This document shows positions 759 through 33,847 of a DNA stretch of 37,347 bases, piece after piece. Position numbers and translations under genes: made by a program. This DNA is from a virus, in IMG/VR virus record IMGVR_UViG_3300036806_000303, positions 1-37,347 of that record. One strand, 5' to 3'. The first letter of the stretch is position 1; every line of letters begins with the position of its first letter. The notes beneath the pieces are model-generated. The model did not search any database. It saw only the letters and a list, made by a program, of their open reading frames with translations, and was not told the DNA's origin.

Positions 759-1013
759 TCAGCCGCCGCGCCGGCGATGCTCGAGCGAGGCGCCGATGGC
801 GAGGCTGACGGGCGGCATGCCGTTCCCCCATACGCGCAGCTCGACCATTCCGCCGGCGGCGATCGCCGCGCGCTCGTCCTCGTCGAGCTCCCACACAGAT
901 TCGATCCAGGGATCGCCGTCGGTCGAGCCCGTGCGCACCCAGAGGTCGTTGTCTTCGTTCCCTCCAGCCAGCGAGAACACACGATTCGACAGCGGGGTTC
1001 GCCGAGGCCGCAT
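759..1013 (-). CDS. Small conserved phage protein of unknown function
   Basis: 84 residues. It contains FSLAGGNEDNDLWVR, then SVWELDEDERAAIAAGG and LRVWGNGMPPVSLAIG. This pattern recurs in small phage proteins of unknown function that sit among regulatory or replication genes. It has no membrane segment, signal peptide or Cys pair. The ATG overlaps the TGA stop of the HTH gene just upstream (TGATG), so the two are translationally coupled and probably share a transcript. The longer upstream reading in the same frame overlaps the HTH gene and was not used. Confidence 0.62.
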   Translation of the reverse strand: MRPRRTPLSNRVFSLAGGNEDNDLWVRTGSTDGDPWIESVWELDEDERAAIAAGGMVELRVWGNGMPPVSLAIGASLEHRRRGG

Positions 1014-1225
1014 CAGCCCATGGTCTCCGCATCGAACTGCTGAAGCTCGTTCGCCTCCCTGCTCGAGCTGGCGATCCACTTTGTGACGTCGCTCTTGCGC
1101 CAGATCCGGCCGGACGCGAGCTCGCTGACTGGCTTCGGGAAGCCCTGGGTGCGCGTGAGCTGGTCGGCGCGCTGCTTCGACACCCCGAGCAGCATCCCGA
1201 TCTCTGTGACTCCAAGAAGTTCCAT
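1013..1225 (-). CDS. Small AlpA/excisionase-type helix-turn-helix DNA-binding protein
   Basis: 70 residues. The N-terminus MELLGVTEIGMLLGVSKQRA is a MerR/AlpA-type helix-turn-helix: LGVTEIGMLLGVS, then the recognition helix SKQRADQLTR. It is followed by the typical wing GFPKPVSELASGRIWRKSDVTKWI. Proteins of this family act as excisionases or small transcription regulators. The gene lies left of a plus-strand gene, and the two 15-bp operators at 1242-1290 lie between them, so it is a candidate ligand of those operators. ATG at 1225 was chosen because the longer TTG start at 1261 would lie inside the operator/promoter. No good Shine-Dalgarno sequence is visible. Confidence 0.72.
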   Translation of the reverse strand: MELLGVTEIGMLLGVSKQRADQLTRTQGFPKPVSELASGRIWRKSDVTKWIASSSREANELQQFDAETMG

Positions 1226-1241
1226 GCTGCGGAGATTACCC

Positions 1242-1256
1242 CTTGACAGCGTCAAG
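1242..1256. promoter_or_regulatory. Operator O1, overlapping a -35 box
   Basis: CTTGACAGCGTCAAG: perfect 6-bp half sites around AGC. Its TTGACA (1243-1248) is also the -35 box of the plus-strand promoter. Confidence 0.7.
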
Positions 1257-1271
1257 CGCAAGCCCTACTCT
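1243..1271 (+). promoter_or_regulatory. Sigma70-type promoter for the gene at 1300
   Basis: TTGACA at 1243-1248 matches the -35 consensus exactly. A 17-bp spacer leads to TACTCT at 1266-1271, a weaker -10 box. Transcription would begin near 1278, inside operator O2, and the leader would carry the Shine-Dalgarno sequence GGGAGGAA just before the GTG at 1300. Confidence 0.6.
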
Positions 1272-1275
1272 ACCT

Positions 1276-1290
1276 CTTGACAGCGTCAAG
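1276..1290. promoter_or_regulatory. Operator O2, at the predicted transcription start
   Basis: An exact second copy of CTTGACAGCGTCAAG, 34 bp centre-to-centre from O1. A repressor bound here and at O1 would cover both the -35 box and the start point. Confidence 0.7.
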
Positions 1291-1299
1291 GGAGGAACG

Positions 1300-1758
1300 G
1301 TGAAGGTTCGGCTCACAGACTCGCAGCGCGCAGGACTCAAGACCCTGTATGACGCAGAGGTTCGGGCGTCGGCGGCCGGCAACCCGAAGCTCGCCTGGAT
1401 CGGCTCACGCGAAGGCATCAACGGCACGACAATCGAAGCCCTGGAACGGCGTGGCTTAGCCCGCGCGCAGTGCGTCAGCAAGCCCTACGCGCGCATCGTC
1501 GGCAGGATCATGCAGCCCGGCATCCAGCTCGTGCGCGATTGGAACGCGGCCGAAGGCGACGAGCTACAACGGCGCGCCGACGAGATCGCCAAGGGCGACC
1601 GCGCCCAGGACGTAAACGAGGGACGCTGCCCGATCTGCGGCGGCCTCAGACCAGGCGACCAGGCCCTGAACATCGTCAACCTCGCGCCCGCCGCGCACGA
1701 GCTCGTGCAGAGATGCAAGAATGCATTAGTCAGCGATGCGTGCCGAGCGCGAACGTGA
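1300..1758 (+). CDS. Winged-helix-like protein with a C-terminal CxxC motif, putative regulator
   Basis: 152 residues, starting at GTG 1300 behind a strong Shine-Dalgarno sequence (GGGAGGAA). The N-terminal third (LTDSQRAGLKTLYDAEV, then NGTTIEALERRGLARA) resembles a winged-helix domain, in which the last helix and wing read 'T..AL..RGL'. The C-terminal part has CPICGG followed by two further Cys, a possible zinc site. It is the only gene served by the promoter at 1243 and its two operators, so it may be an autoregulated or HTH-controlled regulator. Its end overlaps the 3' end of the convergent gene by 29 bp. The regulatory role is inferred. Confidence 0.6.
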   Translation: MKVRLTDSQRAGLKTLYDAEVRASAAGNPKLAWIGSREGINGTTIEALERRGLARAQCVSKPYARIVGRIMQPGIQLVRDWNAAEGDELQRRADEIAKGDRAQDVNEGRCPICGGLRPGDQALNIVNLAPAAHELVQRCKNALVSDACRART

Positions 1759-4451: not shown

Positions 4452-6962
4452 ATGCCCGCCACCCCGTCCTTCCGAAGCGCCGGCACCCACTCGTTCACGG
4501 CCAACAACGTCCAGAACCCGACGACGCTGACGCCGGGCGCACCGGCAGGGACCGCGGCCGGCGACCTGCTCCTCCTCGTCTGCGGGTCGCGGTCGATCAC
4601 CGCCACCGTCGCCACCCCGACCGGCTGGACGCTCGTCACCGGCTTCCCGAAACGCAGCGGCACCGCCTCGGGCGGCACCTTCTACGTCTTCACGCGGATC
4701 GCCGACGGCACCGGCACCGACACGCCCTCACCCATCTGGTCGGGGCTCACCACCGGCACCAGCGGCGACTCCTCCGGCGCCGGAATCATCTGCGTCCAGA
4801 ACGCGACCGCGACCCTCGACGGCACCGTCGCCTCCTCCGACCTCTCCGCGCAGACGACGACGTCGGTGATCCCCGCATTCACGACCGCCACCAACAAAAG
4901 CTACGTGCTCGGGCTCGCCCTGAAGCTGCTCGAGTCGTCCGGGCAGACCTCGACCGTCGCGACGTTCACCGAACGCGTCGACCAGTCAACCACCAGCGGC
5001 ACCGGCCACATCGTCGAGATCTCCGACAAGGTGCAAACCACCGCAGGCTCCTCCGGCACCGCCACCGTCACCTGGTCGGCCACCGGCAGCGCGCGCGCGC
5101 TCACCGTCTCGCTCGGCTTCAAGGCCGCCCCCGCCCAGCTCACCCAGACCGCGTCGTTCACGCAGCCGCAGACCTACAGCGACCAGCTCGCGACCGCGGC
5201 CGGCGCCAGCGACCTCTACACCCAGCCGCAAGACTTCGAGTTCCAGAACGCGGCCGCGAAAAGAGCCGCGTTCACGCAGGCCAGCACAAGCACGCTCAGC
5301 CGGGCCGCCTCGAAGCTGAAAGCCTTTACGCAGGCACAGACGATCGCCGCCTGGACCACGTTCAAGCAGACCGGCAGCAACGCGTTCACCGTCGCCGTCA
5401 CCGTCACCCAGGCGCAGACGCTCACCCTCCGCCGCAACGCGGCCGCGGGCCGCGTCTGGACCCAGAGCCAGACCGCGACGCTGACCAAGACGGTCACCGA
5501 CTCGAAAGCATGGACGCAGGCGTCCGCGTTCCTCTCCACGCGCTCCTCGACGAAAACCGTCGCCGCTGGCCAGCAGCAGCAGCTCACCAGCCGACGCGCT
5601 GCCGGCAAGACCGGAACGTGGACGCAGAGCTCGAGCCTCACCCTGCCGGCGCGCGCGATCGCCGCCGGCCGCGCCTGGACGCAGGGGCAGGCGCCGAACC
5701 TCGCGAAGGCGGTCACCGACTCGAAAGTCTGGACGCAGACGACCGGCTACCTCGCCGCGCGCGCCGCCGGCAAAACGCTGGCAATCAGCCAGCCACAGTC
5801 GGCGAGCATGACCCGGCAGCTCGTCCATCTCGTCACGCTCGCGTTCGCGCAGGCCCAGAGCTACCTCACCTCGAGAAGCGCCGGCAAGACCGGAACGTGG
5901 ACGCAGACGCAGACCGGCTCGAGCTCGCGCGCCGCCGGCGCAACCCGAACGTGGACGCAGGCCGAGAGCTCGAGCTTCCTCCGCGGCGCGATCGGCCGCG
6001 TCGTCTCGCTCGCCTTTACGCAGCCGCAGACGCTCACCCTGCAAAAAGCCGCCGCCGCCGCGAAAACATGGGCTCAGGCCCAGTCGGCGACCGTCGCCGA
6101 GCAGATCGTCAAGCTCGTCACGCTCGCGTTCACGCAGCCGCAAGCCCTCACCCTGCGCCGAAACGTGGCCGCCGGCCGCGCCTGGACGCAGAGCTCCGCC
6201 GGCACACTCCGAAAGGCGGCAGCCTCCTCGAGAGCATGGACGCAGACCGAGGCCGCCACGCTCAGCAAGGCGGCCGCGAAACGGGTCAGCGGCGCCCAGG
6301 CCCAAACCGCCGTCTTCTCCGCCCAGCTCGTACGGCTCGTCGTGCTCGCATTCACGCAGCCGCAGCAGCTCCTCACCCGCCGCGGCGCCGGCAAGGCCAC
6401 GGCCGCCGGCCAGGCGGCCGCCCTGAACGTGCGCAAGGCGGCCGCCGGCGAGCTCGACCTGCGGCAGCCGGCCGCCCTGAACGTGAACAAGCACGCCGCC
6501 GGCGAGCTCACGCTCGAGCAGCCGGCCGCCCTGAACGTGAACAAGGCCGCCGGCGCGGCCCGCTCCTGGACGCAGCCGCAGGCCGCGACCCTCACCGCCC
6601 GGCTGCTCCGGATGATCAGCCTCGCATTCGCGCAAGCCAGCACGGTCACCCTTTCGAGAGGCACCGGCAAGACCGTCGCCGCCGACCAGTCGCAGACCTA
6701 TATGACCCGGAAAGCCGTGGCCAGCACGATCAGCGCGACGGTCGGCACGGTCGGCTCCTGGATCCGCGGCATCGCCGAAAAGGTCGCGACCATGCTGCTC
6801 GGCGACAAGGCCACCACGCTCGCCGTCGTCGACGACAAGCCGACCCGCTACGCCATCCTCGACGACCAGCCCCGCGTCGCCGCCGCCTTCGACGACGCCG
6901 CCACCACACGGCTGCTCCTCGACGACGCCGCAGCCACCCGCGCCGCGCTCGACGACGCCTAA
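4452..6962 (+). CDS. Repeat-rich tail fibre/adhesin
   Basis: 836 residues. Residues 1 to about 230 form a beta-rich N-terminal domain: GTAAGDLLLLVCGSRS, ATPTGWTLVTGF and GTFYVFTRIADG, the 'GDLLLL..PxGWTLV...YVFxRIA' pattern of phage and bacterial surface proteins. Residues about 236-760 consist of about 28 repeats, mostly 18 residues long, with consensus [WF]TQxQxxxLxRxAAxxRx; some are 20 residues and end LVxLVxLA. The last 55 residues are a different 10-residue repeat built on a hydrophobic residue plus Asp-Asp. It is the only long virion-type gene on the plus strand, starts behind its own CGATAGGC element, and meets the 829-residue protein gene tail to tail. A role in receptor binding or as a fibre shaft is inferred. 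Confidence 0.7.
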   Translation: MPATPSFRSAGTHSFTANNVQNPTTLTPGAPAGTAAGDLLLLVCGSRSITATVATPTGWTLVTGFPKRSGTASGGTFYVFTRIADGTGTDTPSPIWSGLTTGTSGDSSGAGIICVQNATATLDGTVASSDLSAQTTTSVIPAFTTATNKSYVLGLALKLLESSGQTSTVATFTERVDQSTTSGTGHIVEISDKVQTTAGSSGTATVTWSATGSARALTVSLGFKAAPAQLTQTASFTQPQTYSDQLATAAGASDLYTQPQDFEFQNAAAKRAAFTQASTSTLSRAASKLKAFTQAQTIAAWTTFKQTGSNAFTVAVTVTQAQTLTLRRNAAAGRVWTQSQTATLTKTVTDSKAWTQASAFLSTRSSTKTVAAGQQQQLTSRRAAGKTGTWTQSSSLTLPARAIAAGRAWTQGQAPNLAKAVTDSKVWTQTTGYLAARAAGKTLAISQPQSASMTRQLVHLVTLAFAQAQSYLTSRSAGKTGTWTQTQTGSSSRAAGATRTWTQAESSSFLRGAIGRVVSLAFTQPQTLTLQKAAAAAKTWAQAQSATVAEQIVKLVTLAFTQPQALTLRRNVAAGRAWTQSSAGTLRKAAASSRAWTQTEAATLSKAAAKRVSGAQAQTAVFSAQLVRLVVLAFTQPQQLLTRRGAGKATAAGQAAALNVRKAAAGELDLRQPAALNVNKHAAGELTLEQPAALNVNKAAGAARSWTQPQAATLTARLLRMISLAFAQASTVTLSRGTGKTVAADQSQTYMTRKAVASTISATVGTVGSWIRGIAEKVATMLLGDKATTLAVVDDKPTRYAILDDQPRVAAAFDDAATTRLLLDDAAATRAALDDA
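5158..6735 (+). repeat. About 28 tandem imperfect 54-bp repeats
   Basis: In-frame degenerate repeats (54 bp, some 60 bp) coding for the 18-residue units of the fibre. The DNA copies are diverged but share segments such as ACGCAGCCGCAGACGCTCAC. Such an array can change copy number by recombination. Confidence 0.75.
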
Positions 6963-33805: not shown

Positions 33806-33847
33806 CCGCCGAGTTTTGACCCCCCACCCGCCGAGTTTTGACCCCCC
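33806..33847. repeat. Two direct repeats, 20 bp with a 22-bp period
   Basis: CCGCCGAGTTTTGACCCCCC occurs at 33806-33825 and 33828-33847. Reiterated GGTCAAAA-type sequences are reminiscent of IS21-family ends, but no transposase or matching opposite end was seen. Confidence 0.65.

What the first reader, a model, noticed from the sequence alone, without database searches (positions are those of the whole stretch)
1225..1302. Paired identical operators built onto a promoter
Two perfect copies of CTTGACAGCGTCAAG lie 34 bp apart. The first contains the -35 box TTGACA; a 17-bp spacer leads to TACTCT; the second covers the expected start point of the plus-strand gene. This is a textbook repressor-controlled switch, next to the lysis genes, between an AlpA-like HTH gene and a winged-helix-like gene.
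Basis: seen in the sequence. Interest (0 to 1): 0.7.

Follow-up and report, generated by a model that had tools for sequence, protein, structure and literature searches.

The report
Phage regulator's paired promoter operators
Two identical 15-base sites sit on a predicted phage promoter, and sites of the same kind recur beside relatives of the neighbouring small DNA-binding protein in other bacteria and phages, so this is most likely that protein's self-regulated on/off switch; the type of switch is ordinary, but it suggests a DNA-recognition rule for a little-studied regulator family.

Summary
CTTGACAGCGTCAAG occurs exactly twice (1242-1256, 1276-1290; 34 bp start to start), the only such dyad pair in the window and not matched in 300 simulated sequences. 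The first copy contains TTGACA, 17 bp before TACTCT. The second covers the expected start, just before a GGAGG-GTG start.

The divergent 70-aa gene (1013-1225, minus) is a BldC/AlpA-like winged helix with an [ST]-x-Q-R recognition helix. Dyads TTG[AT]C-N2-6-G[AT]CAA lie directly upstream of 12 of 47 'QR-type' homologue genes against 1 of 62 others (p=1e-4). In an unbiased scan of all 5-base arms TTGAC ranks first. Several homologues have two dyads, and L082 repeats the window's layout with the same 34-bp spacing.

The same operator sequence is also used by TetR_C_33 repressors in cells (29 of 40 loci), but no such gene was noticed in the window. Family searches did not confirm 'lysis genes' or a winged helix in the plus-strand gene.

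Binding, repression and transcription starts are inferred, not shown.

The parts
1242..1256 (.). Operator 1, CTTGACAGCGTCAAG; overlaps the plus-strand -35 box and lies almost wholly within the -35/-10 spacer of the candidate minus-strand promoter
   Evidence: exact match, dyad
1276..1290 (.). Operator 2, identical copy; covers the predicted plus-strand transcription start and ends just before the Shine-Dalgarno
   Evidence: exact match; same placement in L003, L011, L021, L046, L082
1243..1248 (+). -35 hexamer TTGACA of the plus-strand promoter
   Evidence: read in the sequence; not reported by the generic scan because of the weak -10
1266..1271 (+). -10 hexamer TACTCT (fits TANNNT), 17-bp spacer
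   Evidence: read in the sequence; spacer computed
1291..1296 (+). Shine-Dalgarno GGAGGA of the plus-strand gene
   Evidence: read in the sequence
1300..1758 (+). Regulated plus-strand gene, 152 aa, GTG start; orphan with a CPICGG motif; function unknown
   Evidence: ORF; no Pfam/PHROG/phage match; one weak match of its C-terminus in 396 actinobacterial genomes
1013..1225 (-). Proposed regulator, 70 aa, HTH_17/AlpA/BldC-like winged helix with SKQR recognition helix
   Evidence: PHROG 66 E 4.7e-7; model pLDDT 83, fold matches MerR, BldC, RdfS, AlpA-type excisionase; homologues up to 56% identical
1256..1261 (-). Candidate -35 (TTGCGC) of the regulator's own promoter
   Evidence: read in the sequence; inferred
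1233..1238 (-). Candidate -10 (TAATCT), 17-bp spacer; start near 1226 would make the regulator mRNA leaderless
   Evidence: read in the sequence; inferred; similar -10-to-ATG distance in L066, L071
759..1013 (-). 84-aa ORF overlapping the regulator's stop (TGATG), probable second gene of the same operon
   Evidence: sequence; weak phage homologues

Best explanation
The two 15-mers are twin operators for the small divergent HTH_17 protein at 1013-1225. A dimer of this winged-helix protein would bind each CTTGAC-N3-GTCAAG dyad. Bound at operator 1 it would cover the -35 box, and bound at operator 2 the start site, of the promoter for the gene at 1300-1758, switching that gene off. Operator 1 also lies between the candidate -35 and -10 of the regulator's own, probably leaderless, gene, so the protein would also limit its own synthesis. 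Shown: the operators, their placement, the predicted fold class of the regulator, and the association of its 'QR-type' relatives with upstream TTG[AT]C dyads. Inferred: binding, dimerisation, repression rather than activation, and both transcription starts.
For: Exact repeated dyad with chance excluded. The regulator is a lone winged helix of the HTH_17/AlpA/BldC type. Among 102 distinct actinobacterial homologues, dyads TTGWC-N2-6-GWCAA within 120 bp upstream of the domain: 9 of 40 with an [ST]xQR helix, 0 of 62 without; shuffled expectation 0.04 loci; in an unbiased count over all 5-base arms TTGAC is first with 5 loci, next 2. In loci fetched after the hypothesis: 6 of 25 against 0 of 45, p=0.0014. 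Position: 11 dyads in the 100 bp upstream (3.9 kb) against 6 in 120 kb elsewhere in the same loci. With viral homologues added: 12 of 47 against 1 of 62, p=1e-4. Pairs in L130, L135, L192 and L082; L082 has -35 in a dyad, 17 bp, TATCAT, 4 bp, dyad, AGGAGG, ATG with 34 bp between dyads, as in the window. Phage contigs L003 and L046 carry two and three N3 dyads on a TATACT promoter whose operon encodes an SRQR HTH protein.
Against: No homologue with a binding experiment is known to me. Best-studied relatives (BldC, RdfS) bind direct repeats or form filaments with loose sequence preference rather than discrete dyads (PMC11963761). The dyad spacer varies from 2 to 5 bp across the family. About three quarters of QR homologues show no such dyad upstream. 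The QR definition was loosened once after seeing hits: the first form required Q or Y after the motif, and still gave 10 dyads near the genes in 17 kb against 1 far away in 59 kb. The same dyad is a TetR operator elsewhere.
Confidence: 0.68

Rival explanations
1. The operators are bound by a host TetR_C_33 repressor, so that the phage promoter answers to a host signal.
For: CTTGACNNNGTCAAG pairs lie near a TetR gene in 29 of 40 genome loci across many phyla, TetR_C_33 where family-scanned, with the same -35 / -10 / start placement in several.
Against: No TetR gene was noticed in the window, and none was found by the model in the viral loci with such pairs. TetR sites mostly have centre ACT/AGT; AGC as in the window is rarer. 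The adjacent HTH gene's own family is linked to such dyads. Many repressors that cover a -35 box will converge on TTGACA.
Confidence: 0.1
2. The regulator is the plus-strand gene product (1300-1758) or a phage repressor encoded beyond the contig ends.
For: The plus-strand gene directly follows the operators; the contig is a linear virus record that may be a fragment, so an immunity repressor gene may be missing.
Against: No DNA-binding family match for 1300-1758. No further copies of the operator in 37 kb, unlike repressors with many phage-wide sites. The homologue statistics point to the 1013-1225 family.
Confidence: 0.13
3. The small HTH protein is mainly an excisionase, and the repeats are its recombination arm sites rather than operators.
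For: Best PHROG is 'excisionase and transcriptional regulator'; structural similarity to RdfS and an AlpA-type excisionase.
Against: No integrase was found among the window proteins scanned; the repeats sit in register with promoter elements and a ribosome-binding site; homologues show the dyads at their own promoters.
Confidence: 0.06
4. The repeat acts in RNA as a 6-bp hairpin that controls translation of the plus-strand gene.
For: Operator 2 could fold as CUUGAC/GUCAAG directly before the Shine-Dalgarno.
Against: The predicted start lies inside operator 2, which would remove part of the 5' arm; operator 1 would not be transcribed; the identical DNA copy is unexplained.
Confidence: 0.03

Closest known systems
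BldC of Streptomyces (lone MerR-like winged helix, HTH_17 group)
   Same: Size (68 against 70 aa), fold (Foldseek TM to target about 0.7), no effector domain
   Different: BldC binds direct repeats head-to-tail as cooperative multimers (PMC5859096; PMC11963761); here the sites are inverted repeats on a promoter
AlpA / RdfS / Pukovnik Xis excisionase-regulators
   Same: HTH_17 winged helix; RdfS also represses its own promoter (PMC11963761); PHROG 66 match
   Different: RdfS has no definable consensus site; no integrase found in the window proteins scanned; the C. glutamicum prophage protein named AlpA (homology to this protein not tested) binds TTAAnnG repeats (PMC5539076)
TetR_C_33 repressors with paired CTTGACASTGTCAAG operators
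   Same: Nearly identical operator and the same placement on -35 and start in several loci
   Different: No TetR gene was noticed here; the regulator fold is different
Lambda-type divergent repressor/operator regions
   Same: Divergent genes with operators that overlap both promoters
   Different: Two identical operators rather than three graded ones; unrelated fold; role in lysogeny unknown (lambda details from general knowledge)

Membership tests
HTH_17 / AlpA-BldC-type lone winged-helix regulators | winged HTH domain of this group | tested here: met
   PHROG 66 E 4.7e-7, AlphaFold model pLDDT 83 with HTH and beta wing, Foldseek to BldC, RdfS, 8c3t at about 2-3 A though with E-values above 0.01. 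Pfam HTH_17 itself scores 13.8 bits, below its 27-bit cut-off
HTH_17 / AlpA-BldC-type lone winged-helix regulators | binds direct repeats or forms filaments, as BldC does | not testable with these tools
   sites found are inverted repeats; the mode of binding needs an experiment
QR-type subfamily defined here | [ST]-x-Q-R at the recognition helix | tested here: met
   SKQR in the window protein; Q18 and R19 invariant in alignment A2
QR-type subfamily defined here | TTG[AT]C dyad beside the gene | tested here: met
   two dyads within 65 bp upstream of the ATG; family statistics; feature seen in about a quarter of members only
TetR_C_33 regulon | adjacent TetR_N/TetR_C_33 gene | tested here: not met
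   neighbouring window genes gave no TetR match; the TetR model search covered the window ORFs only through /scratch/all.fa and reported none; the rest of the window was family-scanned only in part
Excisionase (recombination directionality factor) | linked integrase and attachment site | tested here: inconclusive
   none among the proteins scanned, but the contig may be a fragment

The most novel reading that the evidence does not exclude
Lone BldC/AlpA-type winged-helix proteins with a QR recognition helix are a widespread, undescribed class of palindrome-binding autorepressors in Actinomycetota and their phages, reading TTG[AT]C half-sites whose spacer (N2-N5) differs between lineages.
Probability: 0.45. 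Interest if true: 0.55.

Novelty: new variant of a known kind. Interest (0 to 1): 0.42.

Why it matters
Small HTH_17 proteins of this kind occur in many actinobacterial and phage genomes and, to my knowledge, generally lack an assigned operator. A predicted recognition rule (QR helix, TTG[AT]C dyad at the own promoter) makes their targets searchable and testable with a single gel shift. It also warns that the same CTTGACA...TGTCAAG sequence belongs to TetR repressors in other genomes, so an operator motif alone does not identify its regulator.

Tried and rejected
Relatives of either protein in viral contigs by single-sequence search: none; the terminase likewise. Exact 15-mer pairs elsewhere in viral contigs: none. 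Phage-record search with the promoter DNA: only weak chance-like matches. The 152-aa gene: no phage relative, no family, poor model, one weak C-terminal match. TetR as the regulator was considered first because and demoted after no TetR gene was noticed and the QR-family statistics came in. Most viral pairs have no recognised regulator nearby and some look like coding or other repeats. Phage homologues L185-L187 showed no dyad. A papers search for the operator sequence with TetR gave nothing relevant. The RNA hairpin idea was rejected because the predicted start site cuts it.

Full report
The window is a 37,347-base linear virus record, possibly a fragment, 69% G+C. Most recognisable genes run on the minus strand: terminase, portal, protease, major head protein, tape measure and a minor tail protein. 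The best terminase relatives in phage records are about 26% identical, in phiC31-like Streptomyces phages. The locus of the finding lies near the left end.

Observation. CTTGACAGCGTCAAG occurs exactly at 1242-1256 and 1276-1290. Each copy is a 6-3-6 dyad with centre AGC. In the whole window this is the only identical 15-mer dyad pair within 60 bp, and none arose in 300 Markov sequences. TTGACA lies in the first copy; 17 bp later comes TACTCT, a weak match to TATAAT but of the TANNNT form. The second copy covers the expected start, followed by GGAGGA and a GTG that opens a 152-aa frame. On the other strand an ATG at 1225 opens a 70-aa frame whose stop overlaps the start of an 84-aa frame (TGATG at 1011-1015).

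Candidate regulator. The 70-aa protein matches PHROG 66, excisionase and transcriptional regulator (E 4.7e-7). Its model (pLDDT 83) is a winged helix resembling MerR proteins, BldC, RdfS and an AlpA-type excisionase (individual Foldseek E-values are weak, as expected for so small a domain).

Who uses this operator? A scan of 84,980 species genomes for two CTTGACNNNGTCAAG sites 15-23 bp apart found 40 loci. In 29 of them a TetR gene is in reach, nearly always immediately adjacent; those family-scanned are TetR_C_33. In several the first dyad holds the -35 box, a TATAAT-like box lies 17 bp on, and the second dyad abuts it. This suggests that the arrangement serves as an operator pair in nature, but no TetR gene was noticed in the window, so the regulator must be another protein or a host one.

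Homologues of the 70-aa protein decide the matter as far as sequence can. They were collected from actinobacterial genomes. The first set suggested that genes with an [ST]xQR recognition helix have TTG[AT]C dyads at their promoters. L082 is the clearest: after the HTH gene comes CTTGACACGCCGTCAAG, a TATCAT box 17 bp after the -35, four bases, CTTGACGGAGCGTCAAG, AGGAGG and an ATG, with 34 bp between the dyads. Over 102 distinct homologues, 9 of 40 QR genes and 0 of 62 others have such a dyad within 120 bp upstream of the domain; shuffled sequence predicts 0.04. Counting all possible 5-base arms without prejudice, TTGAC is first with five loci and the next has two. In the loci fetched only after the idea had formed, the count is 6 of 25 against 0 of 45 (p=0.0014). 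Dyads are concentrated in the 100 bp upstream: 11 in 3.9 kb, against 6 in 120 kb elsewhere in the same loci. Adding viral homologues and a slightly wider upstream region gives 12 of 47 against 1 of 62. Pairs of dyads occur at L130, L135 and L192 as well as L082. One caution: the definition of QR was loosened once after seeing the data; the tighter form still gave 10 dyads near against 1 far.

Two further phage contigs, L003 and L046, were found by the dyad pattern alone. They carry two and three N3 dyads on a TTGACA-17-TATACT promoter. The operon downstream encodes a protein ending in an SRQR HTH domain in both.

Mechanism. The most likely reading is an autoregulated divergent switch. The HTH dimer would cover the -35 box and start of the plus-strand promoter, and also the spacer of its own candidate promoter (TTGCGC 1261-1256, 17 bp, TAATCT 1238-1233). 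That promoter would start at about 1226, giving a leaderless message, as seems to be the case for homologues L066 and L071. Repression is inferred from geometry; activation is not excluded for the minus-strand promoter.

Relation to known systems. The protein is of the BldC/AlpA/RdfS group by fold. BldC binds direct repeats (PMC5859096); RdfS binds without a clear consensus but represses its own gene (PMC11963761). Discrete inverted repeats at the promoter would be a variant of binding mode for this group. Lysis genes as neighbours could not be confirmed by family searches.

Overall the finding is real and of an ordinary regulatory kind. Its value lies in a testable recognition rule for a family that, to my knowledge, generally lacks assigned operators.

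Noticed in passing
window, minus strand: 550, 2564, 3315, 4405, 12426, 12836, 14984, 22679, 24288, 26048, 26670, 28870, 30372, 30904, 32626, 33541, 33778, 34029, 36172: A repeated motif CCGATAGGCGGC: 19 exact GATAGGCG, all on the minus strand (chance 0.8), 17 of them 5-8 nt before a start codon. It resembles the start-associated sequence GGGATAGGAGCCC of cluster K mycobacteriophages (PMC3203893), but here it precedes late structural genes and lacks AGGAG; a possible phage-wide expression signal.
   Followed up: partly
L005-L044 (genome contigs): Paired CTTGACASTGTCAAG operators accompany TetR repressors across many bacterial phyla (29 of 40 loci); the Glycomyces loci carry the pair with no TetR in reach.
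   Followed up: partly
L135:1483-3051 (oriented to the HTH gene): A QR-type HTH domain fused to what looks by eye like a Ser/Thr kinase, with two TTGAC dyads 28 bp apart upstream; compare the Rv2175c wHTH family, weakly matched by one family member.
   Followed up: no
33806-33847: Direct repeat CCGCCGAGTTTTGACCCCCC, two copies 22 bp apart in the short gap beyond the terminase gene; function unknown.
   Followed up: no
4452-6962 (+): 836-aa repetitive frame (many 'AFTQPQT...' units) on the plus strand amid minus-strand late genes, no PHROG match.
   Followed up: no
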